This document shows positions 32,191 through 60,332 of a stretch of 61,647 nt of DNA, piece after piece (the first letter of the stretch is position 1; every line of letters begins with the position of its first letter). This DNA comes from Perkinsus olseni (Eukaryota; Perkinsozoa; Perkinsida; Perkinsidae): the NCBI GenBank assembly GCA_013115135.1, contig JABANP010000305.1, forward strand, positions 1 through 61,647, given 5' to 3'. The position numbers and the translations under genes were made by a program. The notes under the pieces were generated by a model, which saw only the letters and a list, made by a program, of their open reading frames with translations, made no database searches and had not been told where the DNA came from.

Positions 32191-32212
32191 GTGAGGACTC
32201 CTCAGTGAGGAG
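32191..32212. repeat. 22-mer palindromic insertion site (1 mismatch)
   Basis: Target 8-mer CTGAGGAG. The 7+8+7 rule is met except for one base (first position). Confidence 0.7.
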
Positions 32213-32236
32213 GCATCTGATTTGAAGCTTCTATGC

Positions 32237-32258
32237 GTCATAGGCTATGACTCATAGC
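32237..32258. repeat. 22-mer palindromic insertion site (perfect)
   Basis: Target 8-mer GTCATAGC: x1-7, reverse complement of x1-8, x2-8. Confidence 0.85.
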
Positions 32259-32528
32259 CTTCACCCAGGTTGGGTGCGCCAGGTCGAGCAGCGCAAATAC
32301 AGAAATTCAATTTCCGCGTGACATCTCATGGTGGTTTGCTCAGGAGGAGCTTCGCAAGCTCCTAGAGAAGTGATCCGGCTTCCCGCGCACTACTCATTCT
32401 TTCTTCTCAGATATAGGATAAATCCAGTCAGCTTTACCACTCGATAGCGTTACCGGCTGGCGAAGCTGTGATGGTTAAGCTTTCCCTGAGCACGCCTTGA
32501 CATGAGGATGCTCTGCATCCCCGTACAT

Positions 32529-32550
32529 CTCCTAAATTAGGAGTCCTAAT
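32529..32550. repeat. 22-mer palindromic insertion site (perfect)
   Basis: Target 8-mer CTCCTAAT. First of three in a row. Confidence 0.9.
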
Positions 32551-32552
32551 GA

Positions 32553-32574
32553 TACACGAGTCGTGTAACACGAC
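32553..32574. repeat. 22-mer palindromic insertion site (perfect)
   Basis: Target 8-mer TACACGAC. It starts 2 nt after the previous site. Confidence 0.9.
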
Positions 32575-32577
32575 TAG

Positions 32578-32599
32578 TATACCGACGGTATAATACCGT
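32578..32599. repeat. 22-mer palindromic insertion site (perfect)
   Basis: Target 8-mer TATACCGT. It starts 3 nt after the previous site. Confidence 0.9.
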
Positions 32600-32689
32600 A
32601 GGCTTAACATTCTGGATGCGTGTTTCGATATGACGGGACCGTCCCATGAATGACGAGGCGGATTTCGCCAAGTGCACCGTGCTCAGCAC

Positions 32690-33070
32690 GTCGACGTGTC
32701 CACCAATTTATTGGTCTGCGTTTGTGAGCGTCATCGCACTAACAATGCGGCTACATCATTACACTCGATGTTCAAACTTTTGATTGATCGCTGCCATCCT
32801 AATAATACGACGTAGACGTATATTATACGTCTACTTCTTCGAAAACTTAAGATGCGCTCAAGAAGACGGAATCAAGCCGGTGGGCGAATTACCGTCCCAT
32901 CTAAGGGCTGAAGCAGAGAGCCTCTGCCAGAGGTTCTCAGACCCGCCACATGCACGGTTGGTGCAGCTAGCTCTGCAACAAGGGGGAGGGTTAAAGGGAA
33001 GAAGGGGCTTCGCTGCTCAGCTCAGCAACAAGATTCTTCAGTTACCTGGCTTCGACAAGGTGCTCTTCTC
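32690..33070 (+). mobile_element. Decayed repeat family A, copy 1
   Basis: It shares ordered blocks with 35195-35560 and 45650-45990: GTGAGCGTCATCGCAC, ATTACACTYGATGTT, TTCGAAA.CTT, GGGCTG.AGC.GAGGTTC. No copy keeps a long intact frame. It carries a 14-bp insertion (32913-32934) absent from both other copies. Confidence 0.7.
32913..32934. repeat. 22-mer palindromic insertion site (2 mismatches)
   Basis: Target GCAGAGGT. The family A copy at about 35410 reads GCAGAGGTTC here without the extra 14 bp. Confidence 0.75.
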
Positions 33071-33224
33071 TCAGTCTCTTGAATGACACAGATATCATGT
33101 GAGCGAGCCTCTTTGATGACTGCGTTAAGACGTTCTCCGTGTTGACTCAGCCACGCCAGTTTTTCGACATAAGCTATAAACGGGGAGATGGCCTAGTTTT
33201 CAACATTACCTTCAAGGCTACCTA

Positions 33225-33690
33225 GGACGACACTTCCAAGTATACCACCATGAAGTGCGCGAGTGAAGTGATAACGCTTCATCTTGGATCTCTAGACTCT
33301 TGGTTACATGTACACTGTACATGTACATTGTACAGTGTACATTGTACACCCTCATCATGAGGGCCTCACGAATTGAAGTCACCCGCAGTCTCAGTTGTTG
33401 GAGTGACGCGCGACACGTGTGCGCTATCTCGTCTCCATGAACGTGAAGTGAAGGGACGTTCTCCGCTTTTCGAGAGTTCGCAGGGATGAAGTCCACAGGA
33501 GTTTGAGGAATGTTCGGAAAGATTGATAACAACGATGATATTAAGTTGATTATCAAGCTGATAATCAACCCGACAACTAGTTAATTATCGACTGCTGATA
33601 TGTATCACCCGTGTGATGTTGACGGGATTACGGGGGCGTCAGGAGCTCTGCGTGTCCGGCAACGATATACCGGTTTAACCGGTATACCGG
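33225..33690 (+). mobile_element. Decayed repeat family D, copy 1
   Basis: It shares blocks with 38090-38320 (CACGTGTnCGCTATCTCGT, GTTCGCAGGGAnGAAG, TATCACCCGTGTGA, GGGAGCTCTGC). It includes an alternating TGTACA run at 33306-33350. Confidence 0.6.
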
Positions 33691-33757
33691 CTCGGCAACG
33701 GCTTGAAGGTGAATTCGGTAAGATGATTTTTACGGTATAACTTATATCAGCCGCTCT

Positions 33758-33779
33758 GCAGGATCATCCTGCCAGGATG
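33758..33779. repeat. 22-mer palindromic insertion site (perfect, copy-polymorphic)
   Basis: Target GCAGGATG. The paralogous copy at about 46372 has the uninterrupted 8-mer. Confidence 0.95.
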
Positions 33780-33888: not shown

Positions 33889-33910
33889 GGAACAGCCTGT
33901 TCCGAACAGG
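33889..33910. repeat. 22-mer palindromic insertion site (perfect, copy-polymorphic)
   Basis: Target GGAACAGG. The copy at about 46490 reads GGGAACAGGTGG. Confidence 0.95.
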
Positions 33911-33997: not shown

Positions 33998-34341
33998 AAA
34001 ATCGGGTCGGTCGGACGCTTCTCGGCCGCCGACCCCGAATACAGATAGAAAGGAGGAGTCGGTGAGAGCCGCATCATCTTAGCAGCAGACGGGAGAGCCG
34101 ACGGCAGGCTATGACGGGGTCGACGGGGTATGACGGCAGGCTAAGAAGGATAGAAAGAAAACCTCGGCGAGTGCTCGCGACGGAGAGAGAGAGCGCTTTG
34201 CCAAGCGGTCCGGATTGTGCTTGTTCGTGACAGCGCCATGGAGCTACAAGGAGGCTAGAATCTACCACTTAGGTAGTGACGATCTGCTGGCCCAGACCGA
34301 CAAGAAGGAAAGAACCTTTCATCTCCTTGGTTATGAGAATC

Positions 34342-34363
34342 GCTTCAATTTGAAGCCTTCAAA
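34342..34363. repeat. 22-mer palindromic insertion site (perfect, copy-polymorphic)
   Basis: Target GCTTCAAA. The copy at about 46982 has GCTCCAAAGG without it. Confidence 0.95.
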
Positions 34364-34385
34364 GGTGAAATTTTCACCGTGTAAA
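34364..34385. repeat. 22-mer palindromic insertion site (1 mismatch, copy-polymorphic)
   Basis: Target GGTGAAAA as in the copy at about 46990. It abuts the previous site with no spacer. Confidence 0.9.
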
Positions 34386-34809
34386 TTGGAGCAAACAAAC
34401 TGTTGAGAGGAATCCTCAGTACAGGAGCCGAGAGTACGACTTCAGGGGGGAAACTAGAAGGAGCTGTACACTTGCTTCCCATATGTTCATCTTTTCCGTC
34501 TTTTTCTTCTTCCGATTATCATCACCAACGTCAAGATCTTCATCGATACTCATGATCATTATCTCATCATCAGCTTTCGTATAACCGAAGATGTAGCTCC
34601 GGGCCGAGCGTCCGGCGAGGAGCAGGCTGTATATTTACTACCCATTTCCCATGTTGTTTACGCCGCGAATCCTCTTTCTTTTCGGGGAAGTCCCCGCCGC
34701 CGTTGAGATTCGCGGTGAAGCTTTCCCTCCCAGGAGCGGGAGATGAGGTGGCCGGGGAGCTGCAGGTCCGAATCGCTGCGGACCAGGGACCCGACCACGG
34801 CATGGAGCG

Positions 34810-35560: not shown

Positions 35561-36288
35561 CTTTCTGGACATGCGCCTCCCATGGCCCATGCGGGATGCC
35601 CGCGGCGTTTTCGTTGGTAAACGCAACACATCTTCGTGTGAATGAGTCACGTGGCTGGTTACCTAATAGCAACAGTCATAGGACCGTCGTTATGTCATTG
35701 ACTGGTGAGTCATTAACTAAGCCATCTAAAAAATCCTTCATCTCGGACAGCGCCGTCATCATGGCGGATCCAAGAATTCAAGGCGAATATAGGTCCCTGT
35801 AGAGCCAATTTGGCTCAGCCAAAGAATTTCTTTTCTTTGAAAGAAAGAATCTTGGTTTGATCCAAACGACATTTTTTCTGCGCAAGTATAGTGCGTGAAA
35901 ACGCTTGCGGTAAAAGCTTCTCTCGGAAGAGAATAGATGTGCATACGTTCAAGCCCGCAACAGATGTAATAGTTTAGTGAGGGAAGCTGAAGGAAAATTT
36001 GTTGCGGAAAAATGCGGACTCATTGAAAATGAATCCGCTAGGGGCCCTTTCAAAGAGCCTGTGGTAAAATTCTACGGTAAAAACTCTAAAAAATGAACTT
36101 CTTTCTAAGAAGTTCAGAATTAATCATCAGTAATCATCGGATCAGTACGTCCGGATCCGGAGGAGACGATAAATCACCTCAGAAATCTCTTCACCAGTGA
36201 TGAGAGCTTGCCCATTTTCCCAGAAGGAAAGTTGGGGCTTCCCGATCCAGTCTCACAAGACTGAGGTCAGACGGTGCGACCCTGTGAC

Positions 36289-36310
36289 CCTGTAAGTTAC
36301 AGGCTGTAAC
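36289..36310. repeat. 22-mer palindromic insertion site (perfect)
   Basis: Target 8-mer CCTGTAAC. Confidence 0.85.
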
Positions 36311-36539
36311 CCTGTGACTCACACCAGTCTTGTGGGACCGGGCAAATCACACTACTAGTGTGACACTAGTGGTGTGACGGAGTCACTTTCTTGCTTTTCA
36401 GGGTAAAAGGTCGCAAGACCTCACCCAGCAGCTGGTAGCTGCCAGTTACCGATCTACTTTTCACTGCGACCACGATTTAAGATCGGCCCGACCTGGTCGG
36501 GTGCTAATAAACGGGAAAGATCCAGTGGAAACGGTAAGT

Positions 36540-38256: not shown

Positions 38257-38278
38257 CCGTGTGACACACGGCGTGTGT
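38257..38278. repeat. 22-mer palindromic insertion site (perfect, copy-polymorphic)
   Basis: Target CCGTGTGT. Family D copy 1 (about 33608) reads CCCGTGTGATG at this point. Confidence 0.9.
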
Positions 38279-38733: not shown

Positions 38734-38755
38734 CCTCGGTCACCGAAGTTCGGTG
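38734..38755. repeat. 22-mer palindromic insertion site (1 mismatch)
   Basis: Target CTTCGGTG. Confidence 0.75.
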
Positions 38756-38759: not shown

Positions 38760-38781
38760 GACCCCCAGGGGGTCACCCCTT
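38760..38781. repeat. 22-mer palindromic insertion site (near-perfect)
   Basis: Target GACCCCCT, with the last arm one C short. Confidence 0.65.
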
Positions 38782-38917
38782 ATCGTGTATCACTTATCGA
38801 CGATAGGATATTAGACTAATATTATTAGCGGAGACAGAGAAGGTAATAGCTGATTCTCTGCATCGCCTGAGCACAAAACCTATCAGTTCTAATCGTCCGG
38901 GACTATTCATCCCTCTC

Positions 38918-38939
38918 CCTGGATCATCCAGGCTGGATG
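38918..38939. repeat. 22-mer palindromic insertion site (perfect)
   Basis: Target CCTGGATG. Confidence 0.85.
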
Positions 38940-39216: not shown

Positions 39217-39238
39217 CCCCGCCCGGCGGGGCCCGCCG
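39217..39238. repeat. 22-mer palindromic insertion site (perfect, copy-polymorphic)
   Basis: Target CCCCGCCG. The copy at about 47670 reads TCCCCGCCGACG. Confidence 0.95.
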
Positions 39239-39711
39239 ACGCTGGCGCTGAGTGCGGTACTCTAGTAGCGCGAGTTTAGATTTATGGTAAACGGCTAATC
39301 CCAACTTCAGGTTGAAATCGAATTTAATGATAAATGATTAGTTGATTATGATAAGTTGGTTTGATGATTTTTGGTAAAGTTATGCTGACAGTCCCATTGC
39401 AGGTACGCCGCGTGCAAAAGATGAGAGCATCATGCTCGAGTCGAGCATGGATGGGTCGAGCAGCTCCTAAGAAGTGACCCATCCGCGAATTTCGGCCGGA
39501 CCAAATCCTCGCGGGCTCTGAAAGGATTGACTCAAGCTTTCCTCACTAAAGGCGACAGACGTGACAAAGGTGTGGATATTGTCCATCGAACCTACTCGGA
39601 AGCAACTGCATCTACTCAAAGTTTGCCTTCAGTGAAGGCCCTTCACTCTCCAACGTGGTTTACGATACCGGCAAGGTAATGCTTTATACCCGAAGACTCT
39701 GCGGAAGCAAG

Positions 39712-39733
39712 CCCCCAGACTGGGGGCCCCAGT
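39712..39733. repeat. 22-mer palindromic insertion site (perfect)
   Basis: Target CCCCCAGT. It lies 26 nt before the LINE target duplication, in the host flank. Confidence 0.85.
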
Positions 39734-39770: not shown

Positions 39771-42700
39771 TCCTCCTAGTTGCTTTGTTCTCTATGCCTG
39801 CTCGTGGTGCAACTGCCAGAACCGACTCTCATCAGCCGGGTCTGCCAAAAGGGAACAACTTCACGGCGCCAAAGCGGCACCGTGCGACATTACCAGTGGA
39901 CGGAGTGATACGAATTTTAACTTACAATGTTCGTTCTATCCGTGCACATATGGTGGAAATTAAGAAGATGTCAGTGGAGTGGCTTAGCAGAGAAGTGGAT
40001 ATGCTTGTATTCACCGAGAGTTGGTTGAAATCGGGGGATGAAACCCCTAGACTCCCTGGATATGTTGAAGCAGGGAGGAAGGATAGGAGTGAGAATTGGG
40101 GTAGTAAAGAGGGGAGGGGAGGTGGTGTTCTGATCTATGTGAGAGATCGCATGGGGTACTCTGTCGATCAAATCGATTATAATCGGGGAATTATTCATGA
40201 GGGCATAGACTTTCTACCGATTAATATTCGTCGAGGAGGGAAAAGACGGATACAACTGGTTGGCGTCTATGTACCGCCGAACTTGAGTGACGAAGTCTGG
40301 GAGGAACAGATTCTTGATTGGAATATAAGGAGTAATGAGAAGGGAGCTTTGGTGATAGCTGGAGACATAAATTCCCACGGTAGTTGGAGTTCGATGAGCA
40401 CAGTGGCGGGAGACCGAATAGAGGAGTGGTGTGTGACTAAGGGAATCGAGATTCTCAATGATCCAGTGATTCCAACCAGAATAGCCACCACAACAAATTC
40501 CATGGGCGATCGTATCATACAACTGTCTAGCCCAGATGTTATTATGGTGAAGACAGCCGATGCGATTAACTCCATGTGGGAGTCTTTTCCGGAGGAGTCG
40601 TGTGGATCAGATCATATTCCGATACAGATCAACCTCCTGTGGTCGGATAAAACAAATCTGGGGCACGTGAAGTATCGTAAGAAGTGGAAACTCAAGAAAG
40701 CTGATTGGGATTTATTTCGGGAGAGATTGAGGGTATATTGTGTTGATTCGATGAAGGATGGCGGTCGATACCAAAATGCACAGGAGTTGTATAACTTGCT
40801 GGAATCCAACATTAAATCTGCCTTAATTGAGGCGGTGCCGAGGACAACTAGAGCTAGAGAATATATCTGGTGGACTGATGAAGTAGAGGGGGCTGTGAAA
40901 ACCCGAAGAGAGGCGTTGAAAAAGTTTAGGGAATCGGGATCGGAGGAAGACGGTGATATTTATGAACAAGCGAGGTTAGATTGTAATCGCTTGATTCTCG
41001 AGGCAAAGAAGAGAAGCTGGGAAGATTTTTGCGCACAATTGAATCCTGCGACACCGGACAACACTGTTTGGAGAGTGGTGAGAGGACTGGATGGATCCCG
41101 TCCTTCAGCAAGACACCAATTTCCCCTGATTTTGCCTAAGGCCGTCGGAGAGGGTAATGTGACCTATTTCGATGAGAGAGCGAAAGCTGAAGCTTTCAAT
41201 GTTCATAATACGAGATCTGAACACTATACTGAGAGAACAGAAGAACGAAGGGCGTATAGAAGGATTCGTGATAGGGTTAAAGCGGAGCTGAGCCGATGTG
41301 GTGAAGAAAGGAAGGTTGAGAGAGGCGAGATTGTTCGTATTTTGATTGGTTCGGAGGGGGGGAGTAATGAATGGTTTGATGGGATTATAACTCATGTAGA
41401 CTGCAGTACTGGCAAGAACCATTGTCGGGTAGATTGGGTGAATGGTGATGAGCCAGAATGGGTGGTACTGGAAGATGAGTGTTGGGAATTTGCCGACAAT
41501 TCCCAGCGAGAAGACTATGATGAGTTGTTCTCGTTAAATGAATTGAAGTTCACTCTACATTCGATGTCGCTCAATAAGGCTGGAGGAAGTGATAATATTC
41601 CGATGCAGTGTCTGAAGTTTTTGCCGGACGAGGCTATGAATATTTTCCTCGTTGTCTTGAACAAATCATGGGTACAAGATGCAATTCCTCGGCAGTGGCG
41701 GACGTCTCGGTTATGTCCAGTACCGAAACCCAAAGTAGGCGCATTCAGGCCCATAGCACTGACAAACGCTTTGGCCCGCGTAGCCGATAAGATGGTCACT
41801 AGGAGGATCACACATTATATCGAATCCTGCTCTGGTTCAATCCAACCTGAGCAATCAGGCTTTAGGAGAGGTATGTCAGCCGAACAACAAGCATGTGCTT
41901 TCTCTCAATATCTGGAGGATGAAGTTCGGAAGGATAGAGCAGTGGTAACCGTCTTCCTGGATGCTACATCTGCATATGATTTCGTACGACATGACATACT
42001 TCTGGCTAGGCTGGGGAGTATCGCTACTCCTCCTCGACTATGGAGGTGGTTGAGGAATTTTATCAAGGGTAGGATTGTACACACATTATGGGGCACTTCT
42101 AGCTCTAGTAGAAGAATAATACGACGAGGAGTCCCCCAAGGATGCTCTTGTAGTCCTGTCTTATGGCTCGCATATATGTCGCCCTTGATATCCTATCTAT
42201 GGGATGGGGAGGTAGAAGGTGCTTTTTTCCGTACTTTCTGTTTAGCGGATGATGTGTGCATCACGATGTCTGTGCGGACTTCGGATTTTGATGAGAAGCT
42301 CTCTTTGATGCAAAAACAGCTCAACGGTGCTCATGACTTCTTTACTACTTCTTCTATTAAACTAAATGCGGCCAAATCCGCTTTAATTATATTCTCAACT
42401 AATTATCACATCCGTAGTGAAGATGTAGACCTATATATTGGTCCCGAGCTAGTACCCCGTACCCACGATCAACGTATGCTCGGTCTTTATGTTGATGAAG
42501 CTCTTACGTACGCAAAACACTGTGATCTATGGCAGAAGAAGGTTTATGCTCGAATAAAAGTACTGAACCATATAAGTTCTAGATCATGGGGTACTGGATA
42601 CAATGCTATCAAGCAGCTCGCAGACCAGTTCATTATGTCCAGCGCCCTGTATGCGTCGCCGGGGTTCTTTGGTGTTGTGGGCAACAAAAGAAGCTCTTCC

Positions 42701-44082: not shown

Positions 44083-44591
44083 AATAACTTCTACTACGTG
44101 GACACCCTTCGAGTTAACAACACCGTGTGAATTCGAAGATTCGTGGCGAGCGCCAAAGAATTTTTATTTATTACTTTATTATTGTAACTGTGATAGTTTA
44201 CCCCATGTCAACCGGGTCTAGTGTTAAATCTGATGGGCGTAAGAGAAGCGAGGAATGAAGGCCAACAGCAGCATCCACTTCGAATGGCATTCGACGAATG
44301 CGATGACGAGGTCCTTAGTAAAGACTCCTTGTCTTGGAGCGCCTCCGGCGGGGACGGAATCGTGGACCACGAGTCGCGGTTACTTCCTGAACTCTAGAGA
44401 GTCTTAAGTTGAACTGGGTTTTGCATCCAAACATTTGATTCCACTTGCAAAACACCACAACCAAACTTTGGATTCATCATCCCTCAGCCGAAAGTAGGTT
44501 AGATCAGGGTGCTCCTTTGAAAGAAGTCCGTTCTCTCTCTCTCTCTCGGTATCTTGATGGTTCGCTAGTGGTTACAGATTTGACAATCTTA

Positions 44592-44613
44592 GTATGGGAC
44601 CCATACTATGGGT
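44592..44613. repeat. 22-mer palindromic insertion site (perfect)
   Basis: Target GTATGGGT. Confidence 0.85.
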
Positions 44614-45000: not shown

Positions 45001-45187
45001 CCTTATGAATTCCGACAAAGTACCGCCCATGCGATACCCAACCTATTCAACTTGGCTCCATTCATGATTGGAGCCTCTAGGCACTGGGATCATCACAGAG
45101 ACAACCTGATGTGGGGGAGTGCCAGATCGTCACCACTGGTGACTCACCAGTAGAGGCGGCGGTGAGATTCTTAGGGTGTAGTAGGTG

Positions 45188-46050: not shown

Positions 46051-46620
46051 ATGCATGAGCGCGACAGTGCGAGCATTCGTCGGTGCTACTCAGGGACTTC
46101 AGACGGGGCCCTCGTTATGCTTCGTGCCTCTGAGTTGACCAAGGAAGGGGACGAAGGCGCCTGGAAAGTCTGTCACTGCATGGCTCACCGCTTGGACCTA
46201 GCAGTGAGCTCCGACGTGTGGAAGCGGTCTAGTATCTGCCAGCGTATAGAACGCACTCTGAGGATAGCCTACAGCGTCTTCAACAGATCCGGCCAGCGGC
46301 GTAGGGAGCTGAAACGGTTTGACGGTGAATTCGGTATGATGGTTCTACGGTATAACTTATATCAGCCGCTCTGCAGGATGTGCGTTGGCTTTCGAAGCTG
46401 CAGTGTCTGAGCATACTGTACTGGTCGAAAGATTCTATTGCTGCGTTCATAGCCAGGCGCAACATGGCGCGAGGGGATAAGACGGATTGGGAACAGGTGG
46501 ACGACATCAAGGACCTTGAGCTGGTGATTCGTCAAGCTGCTTTCGCCAAATCGGCGGCGCCGATGAAACAGTATATCTCACGAGGGAATCGGGTCGGTCG
46601 GACGCTTCTCGGCCGCTGAC
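46051..46620 (+). pseudogene. hAT-superfamily transposase-like fragment (ZNF862-like)
   Basis: The frame from 46051 contains TSDGALVM, WKVCHCMAHRLDLAVSSDVW (the C-x2-H-x-L-x-L block typical of hAT transposases and derived ZNF862-like proteins) and a helical ELKRF segment. A frameshift near 46380 continues as VRWLSKLQCLSILYW, the following conserved RW-L-S block. Zinc-finger and catalytic N-terminal parts are not recognisable. It continues into family B copy 2. hAT enzymes duplicate 8 bp on insertion and form hairpins on flanking DNA on excision (family knowledge). Confidence 0.65.
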
Positions 46621-46900: not shown

Positions 46901-46922
46901 AGTGACGTCGTCACTGTGACGA
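46901..46922. repeat. 22-mer palindromic insertion site (perfect, copy-polymorphic)
   Basis: Target AGTGACGA. Copy 1 (about 34275) reads GTAGTGACGATCTG. Confidence 0.95.
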
Positions 46923-47022
46923 TCTGCTGGCCCAGACCGACAAGAAGGGAAGAACCTACTATCTCCTCGGTTATGAGAATCGCTCCAAAGGTGAAAATTG
47001 GAGCAGAGAAGCTGTTGAGAGG

Positions 47023-47044
47023 AATCCTTTGAGGATTATCCTCA
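47023..47044. repeat. 22-mer palindromic insertion site (1 mismatch, copy-polymorphic)
   Basis: Target AATCCTCA. Copy 1 (about 34411) reads GGAATCCTCAG. Confidence 0.9.
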
Positions 47045-47164
47045 GTACAGGAGCCGAGGGTACGGCTTCAGGGGGAAGACTAGGAAAAGCTGTACACTTG
47101 CTTCCCATATCTTCATCTTTTCCGTCTTTCTTTATCATCACCAACGTCGAGATTTTCATCGATA

Positions 47165-47720
47165 CGTCAGAATTATCCTATTTTGAGTCCAGAAGTTGGC
47201 AAGACGTTGAGCCTTTAGTCTGTCAATTTGTTGGTAGCCTTAGCTGATGCCGGCCGAGCTGACATCTTAGGCAAGGATTTTTGCATATCAGAAGGTTCCT
47301 GGGAAAAGGATAAGGGAACTCTCGACCATTATCTGCATTGGCAAAGAAGACACACTCGAGACTCGACCATATATTAGTGGAGACCGAATAGTCAGTAGCC
47401 GATCCTCTTGTTAGGCCGAGCTCAAAATGTATCAGTTCTAATCATCCTTCTCCAAGGAAGTTCCTAATAGATAGAGATAGATGAGCACTTCCTACTCGTT
47501 GAATTAGGTACTGCCGTCTCGAGAGATGAAGAGGAGATAGTGAAACAGTTCAGCTTTGGCTAGTAAGTGATCTTCCGGCAAGACTCAACGGCTAGTTGAA
47601 GTGGTGTTTCGCAAAGGTGAACAGACTGAACGACGGCGTGAGCCTGGTTCGGGCGCATGATGATATCGTCCCCGCCGACGTTGACACTGCACGCGGCACT
47701 CTAGTAGCGCGATTCTAGAT
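47165..47720 (+). mobile_element. Decayed repeat family C, longest copy
   Basis: It matches 34810-35095 in its first half and 38820-39270 in its second, so those two are fragments of one longer unit. Confidence 0.65.
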
Positions 47721-48274: not shown

Positions 48275-48296
48275 AGTTGCACTGCAACTGTTGCAT
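48275..48296. repeat. 22-mer palindromic insertion site (1 mismatch)
   Basis: Target AGTTGCAG. Confidence 0.75.
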
Positions 48297-48816
48297 CTCC
48301 CAATGATGATGGGAATGGCAATAATATTGACCATAGAGAATAAGCTACTGATTCGATATTCCGCCCGATATTTTATGCTTTTTCCCTACGGGTGATCCTT
48401 AGTTTCTTCGCCGCGGATTGTTGTTGGGTTGGTAACGGTTTTTGTCATCCTCTCTAAATTTCGGCATTGATACGTTTGAATTCGTGTCGTTCTTGGATGC
48501 CCCTTCCTCTTCCGCAGGAAACCGCGGATAGCGCTTTGGACGCCGCCCTGGTCCAGGGTTCAGGGCCCCTGGACAGCGGTGGTCGAATCGAGAGAATGCA
48601 GAGGACACTCCTCTGAGGAGTGCGCATAGCTGGTCTTATCGGTAGTGTACGGGTAGTAGCAGACTGCCGAATCTTGTTGAAACCGGTGGAAGTAGTAGAC
48701 TTGACTTGCCAGACTATATGCACTGTCTACATAACACAATGGAGCTGTGCTCATACAGTATGAGTGTGAGTCATACTAGCTTCGCATTATCACTCTATTC
48801 TCTCAACTACTCCACC

Positions 48817-48838
48817 TTTCTACGGTAGAAATTCTACC
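48817..48838. repeat. 22-mer palindromic insertion site (perfect)
   Basis: Target TTTCTACC. Confidence 0.85.
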
Positions 48839-49007: not shown

Positions 49008-49029
49008 CTCACGAATCGTGAGTCACGAT
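49008..49029. repeat. 22-mer palindromic insertion site (perfect)
   Basis: Target CTCACGAT. A similar CTCACGA-C-TCACGAT string without the inverted middle occurs near 38374. Confidence 0.85.
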
Positions 49030-49285: not shown

Positions 49286-49307
49286 TACTAGGACTTAGTA
49301 ACTAAGT
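49286..49307. repeat. 22-mer palindromic insertion site (1 mismatch)
   Basis: Target TACTAAGT. Confidence 0.75.
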
Positions 49308-49425
49308 CCTCCCGTGGATGGACCTCTTCAGCATCACAATCAGGCAGGTGACGTTATCTCTCGAGTTCTTCTCCATGATCGCATCACTCACAAGTTCCTG
49401 AGGGAAAAAGCCAATCCACGGTGGA

Positions 49426-50911
49426 TTATCCACCGGCCTCAGTCGACCTATCGCAGGGTGCCAGTACGGGAATGATCAGGGCCCGATCATCGGGCCGGTG
49501 CTCTGTCCACTGAGCAGCCATCTTACTTGAGCAACAACCGCGGGATCTTGCTCGCCTTTTGGCATGCGCAGCAGCCGACTTCTCACGAAATCGACGACTT
49601 CCTGCGCAAGAGAATGTATGAGATCGAATGCGGAGCCCGGTGTCCAATGAGCTAGACGGTAGCTCACCTGTGATGAAAGGACATCGAACAGACCATCACA
49701 AGCGATAACAATGAATTCGTCTCCGTCCTGAGAGCACCTTCCCGTACGCAGCACCGGTTAGTGAACTTCGCTACTCACTTGGATGAATTCAGCGTGAATT
49801 TCTGGCTCCGAAATGACCAATGGAGTCTGGTCCGCAGGCAAGCCTGTTTTATACTCCAAATCACCGAAGGCTCGAGACACCGCCAACCTGAGAGACCAAT
49901 CATGACCACACGCCGCGGAAACCTCAAGAAATGTACCTGCCGAGGACTCTTCCAAAGAACACAAAACCTCCCGCTTCTCGTATTCTCTTGAACTCGTCCT
50001 CTCGTGAAGGGCGCTGGTCGCTGGATAGATTTATCGCCCTGCTCAGCGCGCCCTTATACAACCACTTTGAGCTCAGCATGCTGGTAAGACCGCGCTGTTA
50101 CCGAAGGAATACTCACCTTCCGTTACGAGATAAAACGGCTCGCGCATCGCCGGTATTCGCACATATTATTGCCCTTCCCATGATAAGCACTGTTACTGAC
50201 ACACAACCTGAGGAACGACGGCCGATCAAGAGTGAACAGCTCTTTCAGCGGCGCACCGGTAGCGCTCGGCCACTCTTTCTCCGTGGCGGTCTGAATAAAG
50301 GCTTCATCCGTGCTGTGATGAGCCTGAGGGCCGCTCTGCAGGTTGCACTTCCGCTATTTGGGACAGAAGTGAAGAGATGGGAATTGGGGTAGATTACGTT
50401 CACCTCTCTTGCATACATCGAAAATGCGCGAAGCATTGGAGTAAAGGAACCGAACAATCGGCCCTGCGAGCGACGACAAGACATACTTGTTTCAAGCACT
50501 CTAGTACTTCGCCATAGACGTCTTGAGAATCGTCGGAACCTCCTGAAGCACAATCAGGACCTCATACTAGTTTTCCTGCAACAGGAATCCTGTTGAATCA
50601 CTAAATTTAGAGACATCAAAATACACACAAGAAGCGGCTGGGGATATTCACCTCGTTGATAGAGCTGCGCCACAAAGTTGAGGTGAAGATACTTCCGCAA
50701 AAAATTAACGCACTCAAGACCCCCATGGCCATCATACCTGCAGTATCCAGGAATTGAATCCCGAATCGCAGTAGGGGGGCGAGCTGACTTACACCGCAAA
50801 CCAGCTGCATTGTCTCTTATTCGATACAGCAAGATCCTACAAGAGCTTTGTTTCATATGGAAGGGCACTAGCTGTGCCAGTTACGTGCAAGGAGATTTCC
50901 TCGTCTTCCAT
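49426..50911 (-). CDS. PP2C-type (PPM) serine/threonine phosphatase, spliced
   Basis: Minus-strand exons give PPM motifs in order. An exon ending at 50793 codes CSWFAV, and the next (50737-50652) starts YDGHGGLECVNF, the metal-binding VYDGHGG block, across a clean GTAAGT...CAG intron. An exon near 50350-50225 holds STDEAFIQTA. An exon near 50213-50111 reads CVSVTVLIMG and ANTGDARAVLSRNG. The exon ending at 49937 has LSSDQRPSREDEFKRI and GGFVFFGRVLG, and 49887 onward reads RLAVSRAFGDLEYK. Then come DEFIVIACDGLFDVLSSQ and a helix ending about 49520. The family removes phosphate from Ser/Thr using two Mn/Mg ions. The start (ATG 50911, MEDEEISLH) and the last exon are tentative. No 22-mer site lies inside. 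Confidence 0.82.
49888..49936 (-). other. 49-nt PP2C intron carrying the recurring GC-rich motif
   Basis: The intron begins GTACATTTC, contains TTTCCGCGGCGTGTGGTCAT and ends GTCTCTCAG. It is alignable with the E2 intron at 7119-7161 in the same orientation. Confidence 0.75.
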
Positions 50912-51352: not shown

Positions 51353-51374
51353 AAGCCAGCCTGGCTTAGCCAGG
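51353..51374. repeat. 22-mer palindromic insertion site (perfect)
   Basis: Target AAGCCAGG. It is followed to 51475 by a dense nest of further CAGAG/CTCTG and CATG palindromes. Confidence 0.85.
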
Positions 51375-52327: not shown

Positions 52328-52349
52328 GGAAAGGACCTTTCCGAAAGGT
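52328..52349. repeat. 22-mer palindromic insertion site (perfect)
   Basis: Target GGAAAGGT. Confidence 0.85.
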
Positions 52350-52841: not shown

Positions 52842-52863
52842 AAAGCCATTGGCTTTAAGCCAA
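52842..52863. repeat. 22-mer palindromic insertion site (perfect)
   Basis: Target AAAGCCAA. Confidence 0.85.
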
Positions 52864-53050: not shown

Positions 53051-53700
53051 TGAATTCAGCAAGACGATTGGTCAACTTCATGTCCTGATGCCCCTAGTAG
53101 CGCGGTTTCGTGCTGGAATACTGGAGGAGCTCGCAATGCGAGCCTTGCATGCAAGTGTCGGAAGTTCGTCGAGAAGCAACCCCGAAGCATCAGCGAGCTA
53201 AGTCACTGTCCAACCCTGTGAGGAGCAGACTTGCAAAACGATGCTTTCCTTTCCTGGACAAAGGCCCGAAGCAGACCGCACACTATTCACTCCTATTCGG
53301 TCACTCCGAGAAAGCAAGGCACTTTGATCTGCCTGTCCCAGCTCTGGCAACCGGTCGTTTTCAACCACTGATAAGGCGTTCGATGTACATCACATCTCGA
53401 TGTGTGTGGATACTATAATAATACGGTGGTCACTGCTGCAATATCCACTGGATGTTGTCGGCGAATTGGGGCGAACCGAAAGTATCAGGCTCATCGAATC
53501 TTACACAGAACCGCTCTTCATCCTTTGCGGAGGGAACATGGCGGGTATTTCTGATATTGCGTTTTTCAGCTTCTCCGCTTCTTCCGGCAGCAGGATACCG
53601 GCAACTGAGCGAAGGCTAACCGTGCGTCATGATTTTCATGATTTTCATGATGGTGAAGTGCGCTCTATTGACCGAGGCAAATTTTCGGTATTCGTTCAGA

Positions 53701-53722
53701 CCAGGACCGTCCTGGCAGGACG
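53701..53722. repeat. 22-mer palindromic insertion site (perfect)
   Basis: Target CCAGGACG. Confidence 0.85.
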
Positions 53723-54372
53723 GACTTCGCCCGACGAAGCCGGTCGCTCGCACTCACGTAGCTCCATAAGCTCTGTTCTACACTCGTAGACAGCACTGAA
53801 GTCATGACAACTCCTCAACTCTTTCAATACCTGATCCGAAAGTAAATCTCCGGCTCATTCAGCTACACGGAGATACCCCGTTTGAAACTGTCAGACCGCT
53901 TGTTCCGGATAGTTCGCATTAGTGACAAGAGTTCTAGAGAGTCTGTAGGCAAGCTTTGCGCCTGTGAATCCGCGTAGAGACTTGGTCGCATTGAACTGGG
54001 TCTCTGTTTTCCGTTTCATTCTTCAGCAAAGGCCCCCCCGCAACGCTTACTGGATGCAAATTGGATATGGATGCTCCTAAACGATTCAGGCCGTAAATCG
54101 ACAGCCACTCAGTCAGCAGGTCCTTGCCGGGTCCAGGGCTGATCTGGAACAGGGGCTGCCGACAATCTACCATCCAGCACAGTTTAGGCGAGCAGGCCGA
54201 GGTAACCTCGGCGAGGCTTCAGGACTTCGACACCGAGTTGAACTCGGCGAGTTCTCACGCTGATGATGGATCCGCCAACTGAGATCTCTTGACCGGCCAT
54301 CAGCTCTACCGAACGATCCCACCTGAATGAGGCTCTGAATCATCAGTATCTCGATTGGATTGGGTGAGTGTG

Positions 54373-54394
54373 CACACACAGTGTGTGACACACT
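54373..54394. repeat. 22-mer palindromic insertion site (perfect)
   Basis: Target CACACACT. Confidence 0.8.
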
Positions 54395-54484: not shown

Positions 54485-54506
54485 GTTGAGTCACACAACT
54501 TGTGTG
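54485..54506. repeat. 22-mer palindromic insertion site (1 mismatch)
   Basis: Target GTTGTGTG. Confidence 0.75.
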
Positions 54507-54577: not shown

Positions 54578-54599
54578 CTTTACGCCGTGAAGTTCACGG
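54578..54599. repeat. 22-mer palindromic insertion site (1 mismatch)
   Basis: Target CTTCACGG. Confidence 0.75.
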
Positions 54600-55929: not shown

Positions 55930-55951
55930 TCAAGCCAGGCTTGACAAGCCT
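55930..55951. repeat. 22-mer palindromic insertion site (perfect)
   Basis: Target TCAAGCCT. Confidence 0.85.
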
Positions 55952-56281: not shown

Positions 56282-57104
56282 GAAGCGGGTCATTATACCG
56301 TTGATTTGCCGGACACGTCTGCGGAGGAGACTGTGCTCAATCTCGCCGATTCGTCGCTCTCTATTGTGCCCATCACAATGAGACCTGCGCACAGTCACTT
56401 TACACGCTGCCAGTGTGTAAGGTAGTCTCGCGCTCCGAGCCTCGCTCTGAACTCCAGGAGCCCGGCTCGTCTGCAGCGGCTTCGGCCCAAGCAGCACGCA
56501 CGCGCGACGTGCGCCATGCTGCCCACAACGGCGCGTCCGCACAATCAATCACATGGCCAGTGGAATATGCACCTACTGCCTCGAAATCAACCCCAGAGAC
56601 GGCGTTATTGAGAGCGCATAATGTTAGTTTGTAGCCCGAGACTATGAGCCAAGGATGCTACTGTTTCCCCAAGGTAATGGGCCTCCACGAAGGCCATTTG
56701 ACGCCAGCATGGGAGCAACTGGGCACTGAGTCTCAGTGACTGAGAAGTTGTGCGGCACAAGTGGCAACCAGAGACTGGAGACAAGCGTGTACGTTGTGGT
56801 CGGCGCAAGCCGCATTCTCTAGCCGAGCTGGTGGTGCATAAGCGAATGGAAAGATCCCTGCGAGCTCACCTAGTAGTAGGAGGGTGGAGTCAGCGACTTC
56901 CTTCCGCGTCCGTAGAGGGAAAAATGTTTGTCTCACGCTCGGAAATTCGCGTTCCCCAGCACTCTCCCTAGAGGTCTTCTTTAGAAGGACTGCACACTAC
57001 GGCAGCACAAGCGACTAGGATTCCTGCAGTATCTTCGTAGCGTGAGCGAGAGTGGAATTGGAGCTTGCGATGTGTCTTGAGAATGACAATCTTGGCTCAT
57101 TGCG

Positions 57105-57125: not shown

Positions 57126-57216
57126 TCGGACTATCCAAGTTGGACCGCCTTTCTTACTTTAGGATCACACGTGATTCAGCACTCCCGGTGTTAAACATTG
57201 AGATATCCTTCATCTA

Positions 57217-57423
57217 ATGAGAGTTCTTTCGATTTCCACCTTCGTCGCTGCCCTCGTCGCGGTACTCTTCATCGCGGGATGCGGCCACTCCAGTGAGAAG
57301 TCTCGAGTTCAATTGGTAAACCGATCTCTCTCGTGTTCAGATAAGAAAACTACTACCGGAAAACCAACGACCAGAGCTCCGACTACTAGAGCCCCGACAA
57401 CTACCCGCCCTACAACTCGATAG
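57217..57423 (+). CDS. Small secreted Thr-rich (mucin-like) protein
   Basis: A 68-codon ORF with a clear signal peptide or lipobox-like start (MRVLSISTFVAALVAVLFIA, then GCGHSS). A short central part is followed by a Thr/Pro/Arg repeat tail (TTRAPTTRAPTTTRPTTR). Such tails are typical O-glycosylation regions. It ends with TAG. It may be complete or a first exon. No family is recognised. It lies in the repeat-rich half, with palindromic 22-mers on its left. Confidence 0.6.
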   Translation: MRVLSISTFVAALVAVLFIAGCGHSSEKSRVQLVNRSLSCSDKKTTTGKPTTRAPTTRAPTTTRPTTR

Positions 57424-58184
57424 AGATGGTCCGCCAACGGCCCTGCCACTGTGGCAGCCTGGCACGCTTCTTCAAGGCTCAACGGCCACTAGTTCACTCT
57501 TCTTCTACGGATCGCTTAGTCGTTTCCAGAACGGTTGTGGCGCAACCCTTCGTACAGGGTTGGATAATGCAGTCGTTCTACCCCATTCTCTTGCTATGGC
57601 GCTCTCATCTCTCGCGGTAACGGTTGGCCTCATTCTTCATTGACCAAAGCTTATTCGACGTAAATCTTGAGTTCGAGTAACTTCCGTCGAATGGGCTCAG
57701 CCGATGAGAGGTGCTCGCGTCGAGTTGAAGCGAGCCAGCTTGAACCAATTGAGAACAGAGAGCCCTATACGCCTCCATTCACCACAGAGATCAGGTGATT
57801 TAATGTGAAAATATGATTCAATCATCCACATTACAAGTCATTGTTCTCTTCGAGGTCAGACTAACTTAATCGGTAAATCCGTGAAAGGGACACTGTTTTA
57901 CGCCCTTGATAACCTTCATAGGCGGCAAATCACATCCAAAATTCGAAAAAAGCCATTCGCCATTGTTTCAAACTATCAGCGCTAATCACTGATTAGCCGA
58001 CACCATTGATGAAATTCATCAGATGAGTGCCGTAAAACTGTATAACGCCTGAAGCTGGTGCAACTAGGACTACTAGTGTTAACAAGCGTAGCCGGGTGTT
58101 TCCGTTGGCAATGCCCGTTTCTGGGATTACTTTGGTACATGAAGATAAACTTCATGGAGATGGTATTGAATATCCATATAATGG

Positions 58185-58206
58185 GCCCCGTTACGGGTCC
58201 CCTGTA
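58185..58206. repeat. 22-mer palindromic insertion site (weak)
   Basis: Target about GACCCGTA, with three to four mismatches. Confidence 0.45.
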
Positions 58207-58600
58207 GTCCTGGGAGTCACTGGAAATACTGGAATTCTGAGCGAACAAAAGGCGTCAGATAATATCCATCGTCGCCGGTCTCGCCGCACGATAGGACCTC
58301 CTCAGACCTCTCGGGTGAGGCCCAACTGTAAGAAGGCGCTGGAACGTCCCAAGCGTGATCCAAAGTACCCCTCAGCGAAGGGAGGCCGAGTCCCTCTCAC
58401 AAGAATGCACTGGCAAGGGCAACCGCGCACGCTGGCCGCGAGACGAGACATGGCCTACAGACGACACCCGTCTCCTTCGCGGCGCGATTTATCATCCTTT
58501 GCGACATATACTTATCGATAGGAGCCATGAGTACTCGAACAAAAGAGAAATGCAGAGCGATATATTGCTACCGGTACGGGATTCTGGACTAGGACCCTCA

Positions 58601-58622
58601 CAAAGGCAGCCCTTGAAGGGCT
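58601..58622. repeat. 22-mer palindromic insertion site (1 mismatch)
   Basis: Target CAAGGGCT. Confidence 0.75.
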
Positions 58623-58991
58623 TTACAGTTGTGAATTCTACAACGTGGAACAGCTTTCATTGGCTTGGTCGGATCGCTCGAGTTTCGCCACAGCCCTGGG
58701 AACTGTCCACAACCGTAGGCAATCATCGTAATCCGTGTTAGTGGCAACTCTACAGTGTAAACAGCTGATTGGCTCCACCCTTCAACATGTGCCGAAGAGA
58801 GCTAAAAAATGTGCTCTTTCTAAGAATTTGTTGTGCAGTGTATGCGCGCGCTCAACAGTAGGACCTATTGAGTAGGCCTTCAAAGCCAACGGCACCTGGT
58901 CTTGCCTTCTGGTACCTCTTTGCTACCCGAACCTCGCTGCTCAACAAAGTTTGTTGTTACTTTTGTTTGAACAGTGCTGTTTTCTAACCCC

Positions 58992-59453
58992 ATGTTGTTC
59001 ACGTCTCTCCTCATGCAAGTAATCATCAATGGTTATGCCCAGCCCTATCCAGACGGTATTTTTAGAGGCTTTGCAGAAAATCCATACATCTTCATCGACG
59101 TTACTTTCCACGAGGATATCCCAAGCTCATGGGTGCACATGGAGGTCAAGTGCGACAAAAATAAGGCCGATGCAGCCAGCGCCATACTGGACATCACGGA
59201 GGATCCCGTCTATCCCGGCGAGTTTGCCGTCGATATTGACGATGACGAATACACCGGGATGATAGACAAGTTGAATGAGATATGCCAAGATCGGGAATTC
59301 ATCATTGACGACTTCTCGCGGTTCAAGGAGGTCACCGAAGGTATCCAGTTTCAGGTTGACGAGGAGGGCCGATTGGTGGATATCATGAGAGTGACTGACT
59401 CGGAAACTCATTTCCGAGAGGGCCCGGAGATGTATGCCGAGACGTTACCATAA
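58992..59453 (+). CDS. Putative secreted acidic protein
   Basis: 153 residues from the ATG at 58992 (the frame opens six codons earlier at a GTG). The start MLFTSLLMQVIINGYAQPYP looks like a signal peptide with cleavage after YAQ. The mature part is acidic (DIDDDEYTG, QVDEEGRLVD) and has two Cys. It stops with TAA followed by another TAA. No family is recognised. The ORF is uninterrupted while palindromic inserts lie on both sides, which argues that it is maintained. Confidence 0.65.
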   Translation: MLFTSLLMQVIINGYAQPYPDGIFRGFAENPYIFIDVTFHEDIPSSWVHMEVKCDKNKADAASAILDITEDPVYPGEFAVDIDDDEYTGMIDKLNEICQDREFIIDDFSRFKEVTEGIQFQVDEEGRLVDIMRVTDSETHFREGPEMYAETLP

Positions 59454-60174
59454 TAAGCGTGCAGTCCGGCGGATAAGCTATCATCAAACACCTCTAGCTA
59501 CCAAGAACCGTGGTAGACGAGCCCTCTAGCTCGGCCCGCAAGTCGCTCAGTTGAACCCTGTCATGTATCATTTCTTCACTTTCGGACTAATACCAGATGC
59601 TCGTTGTGATTAGCTGATCAACACTCTGGCATGCTCGCCTTGAATTCGGTTCGTCAATCTCATGGAGAGGCTGGGATATGTTATTAGTGGATAGTTCCTA
59701 TTAGGATACTGGTCTTGTTTGCACCATTTTTAAGGACGTCGTAGTATGATTCGCTGTTCCACGAGAAAGCCCCATTCCTGGTCGCAGGAACAGTATGCGA
59801 ACGAGAGGGCGCGATCGCCCACCTCTCTACCTAGTGCAGTTGACTTAACCGTGTTGACTTAACACTCGAGGTGCAACTGAGAACCGTGGAGACCGGATAA
59901 TGAGAAACGCGCAAATTCCAAAAAGCCAACGTGGTTTTCCGACTATCACGATGGCTTTTTGCTTTTATGCAGTGAAAACGCGGAACTTCCGCGTTATCCC
60001 TGACATAGGAATCTCCTATTTAATAGGAGATAGTTTTTAGCGGTGGCCACTTCATACTGAACCAGCGCTTCTCGTAGTGTTTCCGTAGTTTCCGTCGAGG
60101 AAAGCTAAAAGACCTTCGGAAATGAAGTTTACCATCTCGCCTATACCGTAGAGGTTAATAACACACTGATCCAC

Positions 60175-60196
60175 AACCTGATTCAGGTTACCTGAA
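60175..60196. repeat. 22-mer palindromic insertion site (perfect)
   Basis: Target AACCTGAA. Confidence 0.85.
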
Positions 60197-60310
60197 CAAG
60201 AATATACGATTATTTATGGAACGGCATTACCTGTCTCACAGCTGCTAAAGGAAACCCTTTAATATATGCAGTTGTGCAAGTGCACAACTGCGGCTTGCCG
60301 CTGGTTGATG

Positions 60311-60332
60311 ACTTTATGATAAAGTCTTTATC
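60311..60332. repeat. 22-mer palindromic insertion site (perfect)
   Basis: Target ACTTTATC. Confidence 0.85.

What the first reader, a model, noticed from the sequence alone, without database searches (positions are those of the whole stretch)
32191..60332. About 40 sites obey one exact rule: an 8-mer becomes a 22-mer (7 + inverted 8 + 7)
Seen directly: at each site the sequence is x1-x7, then the reverse complement of x1-x8, then x2-x8. I found 24 perfect sites and about 15 with one or two changes. Perfect starts: 32237, 32529, 32553, 32578, 33758, 33889, 34342, 36289, 38257, 38918, 39217, 39712, 44592, 46901, 48817, 49008, 51353, 52328, 52842, 53701, 54373, 55930, 60175, 60311. The target 8-mers share no obvious consensus. 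A fixed length with arbitrary sequence points to an enzymatic process, not random slippage. I know of no described element with this structure.
Basis: seen in the sequence. Interest (0 to 1): 0.96.

Follow-up and report, generated by a model that had tools for sequence, protein, structure and literature searches.

The report
Uniform hairpin scars of departed transposons
DNA of what is, by protein similarity, the clam parasite Perkinsus olseni is peppered with 22-base scars all built by one exact rule, each likely left where a hAT-type jumping gene cut itself out and the broken ends were rejoined through predicted hairpin intermediates, giving one uniform scar where published cases usually show several.

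Summary
All 24 listed sites are exact, 10 more perfect ones exist in the window (34; none in 20 simulated sequences), and the peak at 8 is sharp (2 at k=7, 0 at k=6 and k=9-14). It is genome-wide: 134 perfect sites in 302,879 non-overlapping bases, and in a whole-genome triple-repeat search 66 of 101 readings of the 100 listed hits fall in the two spacings, out of 169, that the rule predicts. Repeat copies show the event itself: 18 distinct 14-bp insertions that turn a bare 8-mer into the 22-mer, all obeying the rule. The genome is Perkinsus olseni by protein match. It carries hAT transposase domains and two hAT elements with 8-bp target duplications, and the scar targets show the hAT preference nTnnnnAn (p=1.6e-9). 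The pattern is what hAT excision predicts: flank hairpins centred on the complement of the base next to the element, opened at least 8 nt deep, their complementary tails annealed and filled in. Published hAT footprints are mostly short and mixed; here one full-length product dominates, of order 20,000 copies by extrapolation. No site was caught empty, filled and scarred, so the transposon step is inferred.

The parts
26834..26855 (.). perfect 22-mer scar (7+inverted 8+7)
31192..31213 (.). perfect 22-mer scar
32237..32258 (.). perfect 22-mer scar
32529..32550 (.). perfect 22-mer scar
32553..32574 (.). perfect 22-mer scar
32578..32599 (.). perfect 22-mer scar
33758..33779 (.). perfect 22-mer scar; paralogue at 46314-46440 has the bare 8-mer
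33889..33910 (.). perfect 22-mer scar; paralogue at 46430-46541 lacks 14 bp here, with the gap split in the alignment
34342..34363 (.). perfect 22-mer scar; 14-bp insertion relative to paralogue at 46922-47028
35802..35823 (.). perfect 22-mer scar
36289..36310 (.). perfect 22-mer scar
36348..36369 (.). perfect 22-mer scar
38257..38278 (.). perfect 22-mer scar
38918..38939 (.). perfect 22-mer scar
39217..39238 (.). perfect 22-mer scar; 14-bp insertion relative to paralogue at 47610-47720
39625..39646 (.). perfect 22-mer scar
39712..39733 (.). perfect 22-mer scar
44280..44301 (.). perfect 22-mer scar
44592..44613 (.). perfect 22-mer scar
45129..45150 (.). perfect 22-mer scar
46901..46922 (.). 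perfect 22-mer scar; 14-bp insertion relative to paralogue at 34219-34342
48817..48838 (.). perfect 22-mer scar
49008..49029 (.). perfect 22-mer scar
49413..49434 (.). perfect 22-mer scar
51353..51374 (.). perfect 22-mer scar
52328..52349 (.). perfect 22-mer scar
52842..52863 (.). perfect 22-mer scar
53701..53722 (.). perfect 22-mer scar
54233..54254 (.). perfect 22-mer scar
54373..54394 (.). perfect 22-mer scar
55930..55951 (.). perfect 22-mer scar
56724..56745 (.). perfect 22-mer scar
60175..60196 (.). perfect 22-mer scar
60311..60332 (.). perfect 22-mer scar
34364..34385 (.). scar with 1 mismatch; 14-bp insertion relative to paralogue at 46944-47071
47023..47044 (.). scar with 1 mismatch; 14-bp insertion relative to paralogue at 34379-34478
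389..410 (.). scar-like, 1 mismatch
32191..32212 (.). scar-like, 1 mismatch
33328..33349 (.). scar-like, 1 mismatch
33349..33370 (.). scar-like, 1 mismatch
36480..36501 (.). scar-like, 1 mismatch
38734..38755 (.). scar-like, 1 mismatch
38760..38781 (.). scar-like, 1 mismatch
38808..38829 (.). scar-like, 1 mismatch
48275..48296 (.). scar-like, 1 mismatch
48600..48621 (.). scar-like, 1 mismatch
49286..49307 (.). scar-like, 1 mismatch
49474..49495 (.). scar-like, 1 mismatch
50573..50594 (.). scar-like, 1 mismatch
53129..53150 (.). scar-like, 1 mismatch
54197..54218 (.). scar-like, 1 mismatch
54485..54506 (.). scar-like, 1 mismatch
54578..54599 (.). scar-like, 1 mismatch
58007..58028 (.). scar-like, 1 mismatch
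58601..58622 (.). scar-like, 1 mismatch

Best explanation
Each 22-mer is most likely the scar of a hAT-type transposon that inserted with an 8-bp target duplication and later left, its flanks predicted to close as hairpins with a 1-nt tip that are then opened and rejoined by annealing two complementary 8-nt tails. Steps. (1) Insertion duplicates x1-x8 on both sides (shown for two resident hAT elements; inferred at the scars). (2) On excision each strand would be nicked 1 nt into the flank; the flank end attacks the opposite strand and makes the hairpin x1..x7[x8']x7'..x1' on the left and its mirror on the right (inferred from the hAT literature; both 15-nt odd palindromes are present in every perfect scar by construction of the rule). 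(3) A host nuclease would nick each hairpin 8 nt or more from the tip, leaving 3' tails that contain x8'..x1' and x1..x8; because both came from the same duplicated 8-mer they are fully complementary (inferred). (4) The tails anneal, any overhang beyond them is trimmed, both sides are filled in and ligated, giving x1-7, rc(x1-8), x2-8, a net gain of 14 bp (outcome shown, route inferred). The length is fixed by the duplication length, not by a measuring nuclease, so any sequence obeys the rule.
For: Outcome seen as an event: 18 distinct 14-bp insertions between repeat copies, 18 of 18 obey the rule (14 perfect, 4 with 1 mismatch); no other indel size of 10 bp or more has more than 3 cases. Length: 8 equals the duplication of two resident hAT elements, L008 537-1967 (GTCCGGAG both sides, ends match 12 of 12) and L006 982-2845 (GTCTGATG both sides, ends match 8 of 11). 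One-base offset: 34 perfect for 7+8+7, 0 for 8+8+8; Ac/Ds footprint palindromes centre on the complement of the base next to the element (PMC5873905, passages), and earlier Ac/Ds work fits cleavage at the nucleotide flanking the insertion (PMC1978519, passages). Hairpin-capped flanks are shown for Hermes and Kat1 (PMC4763223, passages). Target choice: T at x2 or A at x7 in 159 of 420 (83 + 76 in 210 sites with up to 1 mismatch), p=1.6e-9, the Hermes and hobo preference nTnnnnAn (PMC10368747, PMC3276498, passages). hAT dimerisation domain: 21 matches in this genome. Whole-genome spacing test: 66 of 101 readings of the 100 listed hits at the two predicted spacings, 58 of the 66 with the extra complement constraint. 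Bare sister sites have no palindrome of their own to start from: mean longest stem 4.3 in 19 contexts against 4.1 at 600 random places.
Against: No locus was found in all three states; a hAT-family copy on C34 has empty sisters but no scarred one, and its left duplication was not found. Few hAT elements remain for some 20,000 scars: 21 domain matches, 35 exact TAGAGATGGGCA ends against 5 in the reversed control, and the 5 further ends that I read do not continue like the family. Published hAT footprints are mostly mixed and short; the short Ac-type 16-mer is at background here (5 observed, 4 in one simulation), so the repair route must differ. Some other short joint classes show small excesses (13 against 4, 6 against 0, 7 against 2). 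The 8-mers beside 17 hAT ends give T/A in 12 of 34, p=0.11; leaving out the 5 doubtful ends afterwards gives 12 of 24, p=0.006, a choice made after seeing the data. Decayed scars are fewer than steady accumulation predicts. Density varies from 0 to 16 per 10 kb and is not explained by open-frame coverage (rho -0.14, p=0.50).
Confidence: 0.8

Rival explanations
1. A transposon of another superfamily with an 8- to 9-bp duplication (Mutator-like, Merlin, P) made the scars.
For: Merlin-related frames and relics are reported in Perkinsus marinus (PMC8101967, passages); P elements share an 8-bp duplication with T and A at the same places, GTCCGGAC (PMC3276498, passages).
Against: Mutator-like Muta1 gives a mix of 8 and 9 bp with little or no sequence preference and about 90% precise excision when the duplications are present (PMC5225508, passages); here k=9 is 0 perfect. 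Merlin transposase domain PF12762: no match at E 1e-3 in this genome. P elements are recalled to excise with long staggered cuts and no flank hairpin; P itself was not searched for, nor was a Mutator transposase.
Confidence: 0.07
2. No transposon: a replication or repair template switch copies the nascent strand backwards and forwards again at one 8-nt step.
For: The product can be written as two switches; one 36-mer (L049 1022-1057) is a second event on the centre of a first scar, and one in L039 fits simple slippage better.
Against: Template switching has no reason to fix 8 and the one-base overlap (k=7 2, k=9 0) or to prefer nTnnnnAn. The bare sister sites show no excess of palindromes to switch on (mean longest stem 4.3 against 4.1).
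Confidence: 0.05
3. A host-tamed or programmed hAT-type recombinase removes many elements at a set life stage, as ciliates remove internal sequences, and these are the seams.
For: One uniform product; scars far outnumber resident elements; an open frame of 581 aa with a hAT dimerisation domain exists (L011 1402-3147, minus strand).
Against: Sister copies 97-100% alike over about 90-130 aligned bases differ in scar presence and scars span all decay stages (134, 74, 73 and 60 above background with 0, 1, 2 and 3 mismatches), which looks like accumulation, not one shared programme. The rate needed is modest, about 0.009 to 0.014 scars per base per substitution per site.
Confidence: 0.06

Closest known systems
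hAT (Ac/Ds, Tam3, Hermes, hobo, TcBuster) excision footprints
   Same: Palindromes centred on the complement of the base next to the element, 8-bp duplication, hairpin and microhomology repair, nTnnnnAn targets (PMC5873905, PMC1978519, PMC3499496, PMC10368747, passages).
   Different: Known ones are mostly mixed and short: 28 footprints among 128 in Candida, added palindromes of at most 3 nt there and arms up to 20 nt in baker's yeast (PMC5873905); in HEK-293 cells a few nt, some deletions (PMC3499496). A single donor can favour one product, 11 of 17 in one Arabidopsis line (PMC1978519), but a short one. Here one product, arm 7 on both sides joined through 8 complementary nt, dominates over arbitrary sites (134 perfect; other joint classes at or little above one simulation, save the 14-mer).
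V(D)J P-nucleotides / RAG and Transib hairpin joints
   Same: Flank hairpins opened off-centre leave palindromic additions (recalled).
   Different: 5-bp duplications for Transib (PMC3276498, table passage) and, as recalled, no 1-nt offset; joints are diverse.
Kat1 mating-type switching (Kluyveromyces lactis)
   Same: hAT-derived enzyme, hairpin-capped flanks, cut mostly 1 nt from the start of the assigned terminal repeat (PMC4763223, passages).
   Different: One locus, programmed; not a genome-wide set of arbitrary sites.
mPing excision repair by target-duplication microhomology
   Same: The duplicated target supplies the homology that fixes the repair product (PMC4561436, listing and start of abstract only).
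   Different: There the repair is precise; here the homology would be between inverted hairpin tails and adds 14 bp.

Membership tests
hAT transposon excision footprint | 8-bp target duplication | tested here: met
   Scar unit is 8; two resident hAT elements carry 8-bp duplications.
[quoted passage not shown]
   7+8+7 34 perfect, 8+8+8 0.
hAT transposon excision footprint | Target preference nTnnnnAn | tested here: met
   T at x2 or A at x7 159 of 420, p=1.6e-9; the next dyad position has 31%. Sister copies of one scar with altered flanks may count twice.
hAT transposon excision footprint | hAT transposase genes in the same genome | tested here: met
   21 matches to PF05699; 581-aa open frame with PF05699 and PF14291.
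hAT transposon excision footprint | The element itself seen at a site that is a scar in a sister copy | tested here: inconclusive
   None found; one filled site with two empty sisters, right junction only.
hAT transposon excision footprint | Hairpin intermediate on the flank | not testable with these tools
   Inferred from the product and from PMC4763223, PMC5873905.
Mutator-like footprint | 9-bp (or mixed 8/9) duplication | tested here: not met
   k=9: 0 perfect in window and in 20 stretches.
Merlin footprint | Merlin transposase in the genome | tested here: not met
   PF12762 no match at E 1e-3; six-frame search, introns ignored.
P-element footprint | P transposase in the genome | not tested
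   No search run for it.
Replication slippage / tandem repeat | Broad length distribution, direct repeats | tested here: not met
   Sharp peak at 8 and at 14-bp insertions.

The most novel reading that the evidence does not exclude
Perkinsus rejoins transposon-made hairpins by one near-exclusive route, in which the two hairpins are opened past the duplication and zipped together through their own inverted target copies; this turns hAT hopping into a stereotyped genome-wide mutator (+14 bp, a frameshift in any reading frame it hits) that contributes about one scar per 70 to 110 substitutions and leaves a readable archive of some 20,000 past transpositions.
Probability: 0.6. Interest if true: 0.82.

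Novelty: new variant of a known kind. Interest (0 to 1): 0.74.

Why it matters
How cells open and join transposase-made hairpins has been inferred from small collections of reporter footprints. Here nature seems to have run the experiment thousands of times with one outcome, so the opening depth, the use of the duplication as homology, and the rate can be read from sequence. If the reading holds, the scar identifies hAT excisions without knowing the element, dates them by decay, and gives a search rule usable in any genome; a uniform outcome would also point to an unusual hairpin-processing route in a lineage related to dinoflagellates and apicomplexans.

Tried and rejected
Local feature of the window: rejected, found in 16 of 20 other stretches. 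Chance or low complexity: rejected. Other lengths and overlap choices: none comparable. Other joint classes (P-nucleotide lengths a, b from 0 to 8): a+b=8 is the 22-mer itself; against one simulation the rest are at background or show small excesses (for example 13 against 4, 6 against 0, 7 against 2), and the 14-mer with no added bases is high (233 against 76), which I take for tandem repeats and did not pursue. Large insertions at scar sites among the aligned copies: none recognised. Other ends of the hAT copies on C204 and C206: not found in 2.6 kb more of each. Empty site of the L006 element: flanks unique. LINE copies as carriers of scars or hAT insertions: two full and three partial copies of 0.7 kb or more, no useful split. 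Insertion in the C599 copy at a scar: TA at its borders, looks mariner-like, not hAT. Serial scars on one site: one chain-type 36-mer and one slippage-like one, so not a main route. Loss of classical end joining as the reason for one product: not supported, a Ku-domain match is present; DNA polymerase A family matches exist but theta was not singled out. Scan for intact inverted-end elements with looser ends: a list of mostly chance pairs, from which I picked L006 because its ends resemble the L008 family.

Sampling cautions. Of the 20 stretches, 12 are contig starts chosen blindly (42 perfect sites in 120,000 bases by the per-locus rows, 0.35 per kb); 7 lie at hits of an unrelated palindromic pattern and 1 at a hAT hit, so the 0.38 per kb of all 20 may be a little high. 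The 302,879 bases also include about 61 kb of hAT-selected loci. In the triple search 100 of 140 matches were listed; the 66 hits at the predicted spacings hold 41 distinct strings, so some are copies of one another or one site read on both strands. In some searches alignments share copies, so substitutions are counted more than once while scars are counted once.


Full report
WHAT WAS CHECKED. The rule says that a site reads x1-x7, reverse complement of x1-x8, x2-x8. I scanned the window for the same rule at every length from 4 to 14. Length 8 gives 34 perfect sites; 6 gives 0, 7 gives 2, 9 to 14 give none; allowing 2 mismatches, 8 gives 75 and 9 gives 0. In 20 simulated first-order Markov sequences the mean at length 8 is 0. 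All 24 listed sites are exact and 10 more were missed. The overlap of one base on each side is also exact: of 16 overlap choices at length 8, only the one described has more than 2 hits. 50 kb of E. coli has none.

IT IS GENOME-WIDE. The window lies in a 61.5-Mb assembly. A 518-aa peptide-transporter open frame at 526-2082 is 99% identical over 93% of its length to a Perkinsus olseni protein, with P. marinus and P. chesapeaki proteins next among the named hits, so I take the organism to be P. olseni. Twenty other stretches (177,377 bases, 12 of them chosen blindly) hold 68 perfect sites, 16 of 20 have at least one, and lengths 7, 9 and 10 have none. In 302,879 non-overlapping bases, hAT-selected loci and the window included, there are 134 perfect sites. 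A search of the whole genome for CTGAC, its reverse complement and CTGAC again, with both gaps free from 0 to 12, gave 140 matches, of which 100 were listed; these can be read in 101 ways, and 66 of the 101 fall in the two gap pairs (3,1) and (1,3) that the rule predicts, out of 169 possible; 58 of the 66 meet the further complement constraint that chance would meet in a quarter. The 66 hold 41 distinct strings, so some are repeat copies or one site read on both strands. The tool's own control, the pattern read backwards, is another inverted triple and so is not a negative control (63+48 matches). Extrapolating from the 12 blindly chosen contig starts (42 in 120 kb), or from the triple search, gives of order 20,000 perfect sites; this is arithmetic on samples, not a count.

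THE EVENT ITSELF IS VISIBLE. Between repeat copies, some carry the 22-mer where the sister carries the bare 8-mer, among them the window's own pairs 33758/46314, 34342/46922, 46901/34219, 47023/34379 and 39217/47610. Taking all 48 alignments of at least 70% identity between repeat copies (29,294 aligned bases, 1,272 substitutions), insertions of 14 bp number 19, or 18 once one seen in two alignments is counted once, and every one obeys the rule (14 perfect, 4 with 1 mismatch); no other size of 10 bp or more occurs more than 3 times, and only 1-bp gaps (45) are commoner. The bare sister sites show no excess of palindromes. At L005 434 one copy has the scar and L008 and L019, themselves close copies of each other, have the bare site, so gain, not loss, is the simpler direction. 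Fourteen is not a multiple of 3, so a scar in a reading frame would break it; long open frames hold 16 of 100 sites but 27% of the bases.

WHAT MAKES IT. Three numbers point to hAT transposons. First, 8 is the hAT target duplication; two resident hAT elements here have intact 8-bp duplications: L008 537-1967, 1,431 bp, GTCCGGAG on both sides, ends matching 12 of 12, and L006 982-2845, 1,864 bp, GTCTGATG on both sides, ends matching 8 of 11 (picked from a list of mostly chance pairs because its ends resemble the first). Both contain a hAT dimerisation-domain match. Second, the one-base offset: footprint palindromes of Ac/Ds centre on the complement of the base next to the element (PMC5873905, passages), which fits a nick at the nucleotide flanking the insertion (PMC1978519, passages); Hermes and Kat1 cap the flanks with hairpins (PMC4763223, passages), and the 1-nt nick of Hermes is recalled. 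A perfect scar contains exactly those two palindromes, x1..x7[x8']x7'..x1' and x8'..x2'[x1']x2..x8. Third, the targets show T at position 2 or A at position 7 in 159 of 420 cases against 24.7% expected (p=1.6e-9), the strongest of the eight dyad tests for T/A; Hermes and hobo prefer nTnnnnAn (PMC10368747 and PMC3276498, passages). The 8-mers beside 17 hAT ends give 12 of 34, p=0.11; five of these ends do not continue like the family, and without them it is 12 of 24, p=0.006, but that cut was made after seeing the data.

WHY ONE PRODUCT. If both hairpins are nicked at least 8 nt from the tip, the left 3' tail contains x8'..x1' and the right one x1..x8. These are complementary because both derive from one duplicated 8-mer. 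Annealing, trimming of anything beyond, fill-in and ligation give the 22-mer whatever the sequence and wherever exactly the nicks fell. So the fixed length follows from the duplication, and no measuring enzyme is needed. This repair route is inferred. It predicts that shorter or one-sided joints should be rare when opening is deep; the joint-class scan mostly agrees (134 for a+b=8; the Ac-type 16-mer 5 against 4 in one simulation), with small excesses in a few short classes (13 against 4, 6 against 0, 7 against 2) and a larger one for 14-mers with no added bases (233 against 76) that I take for tandem repeats without proof.

RATE. If scars arise steadily and decay by substitution, the number still perfect implies 0.0093 scars per base per substitution per site; the copy comparison implies about 0.014 (18 events to 1,272 substitutions), an underestimate if shared copies inflate the substitutions. 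The two agree within a factor of two. Scars with 0, 1, 2 and 3 mismatches exceed background by 134, 74, 73 and 60, where a steady rate predicts 1: 0.82: 0.99: 1.11, so all ages are present with an excess of young ones. No single burst is required; a small population of elements that hop steadily would do, and few elements against many scars is then expected, since each hop leaves a scar and the element moves on.

WHAT IS MISSING. I did not find one site in the three states empty, filled and scarred. The nearest is a hAT-family copy on C34 (L048, right end at 1161) whose right flank is present without the element in C637 and C258, with a single TCCTGTAT at the junction; that it is hAT rests on my reading of its coding end by eye and on no domain search. 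Its left flank was not found. Density per 10 kb runs from 0 to 16 and the window's first 31 kb holds 1 of 34 perfect sites; open-frame coverage does not explain this.

LITERATURE. Ten searches of the held open-access library, several with listings cut short, showed no title or abstract start that describes this scar in Perkinsus or a genome-scale set of uniform hAT footprints; most subscription papers are not held, and I read passages, not whole papers. In Candida 128 Ds excisions gave 28 different footprints (PMC5873905); in HEK-293 cells TcBuster left a few inserted bases or deletions (PMC3499496); in Arabidopsis one donor gave the same short footprint in 11 of 17 (PMC1978519); in rice 8 of 94 excisions of all DNA-transposon classes left just the duplication and the rest had deletions, fillers or both (PMC4423477, passages).

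VERDICT. A true, sharp, genome-wide rule; most likely a uniform hAT excision scar. New variant of a known kind: the hairpin footprint is known; the single full-duplication inverted form at this scale was not found in print in the searches named. On rereading I mended counts and wording (distinct events, spacing readings, Kat1 cut, Arabidopsis case) and left the odds as they were.

Noticed in passing
window 39785-44002: Open frame of 1,405 aa with endonuclease, reverse transcriptase and weak RNase H domains: a LINE-type element with no scar (up to 2 mismatches) inside, though it sits between scarred regions; two full and three partial copies of 0.7 kb or more in the genome.
   Followed up: partly
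window 20458-21546, 25702-26589, 26918-28126: Three open frames with CRT-like / SLC35F transporter domains close together in the gene-rich half.
   Followed up: no
L049 1022-1057 (C599): A 36-mer that fits two successive scars, the second on the central 8-mer of the first, with 1 mismatch; the slippage form has 3.
   Followed up: partly
L049 (C599 about 13746-14251): An insertion of about 500 bp with about 30-bp inverted ends and TA borders, mariner-like by eye, inside a scar that has 1 mismatch in the C34 copy.
   Followed up: partly
window 32529, 32553, 32578: Three perfect scars within 71 bases, 2 and 3 bases apart.
   Followed up: no
134 perfect sites: The base before x1 complements x2 and the base after x8 complements x7 together in 20 of 134 sites, about 8 expected; not explained by serial scars, which are rare.
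   Followed up: partly
L011 24-758 and 1402-3147: A reverse transcriptase fragment next to a 581-aa open frame with DUF4371 and hAT dimerisation domains.
   Followed up: no
window 1-31000: Only 1 of 34 perfect scars lies in the first half of the window; strong unevenness also between 10-kb stretches elsewhere.
   Followed up: partly
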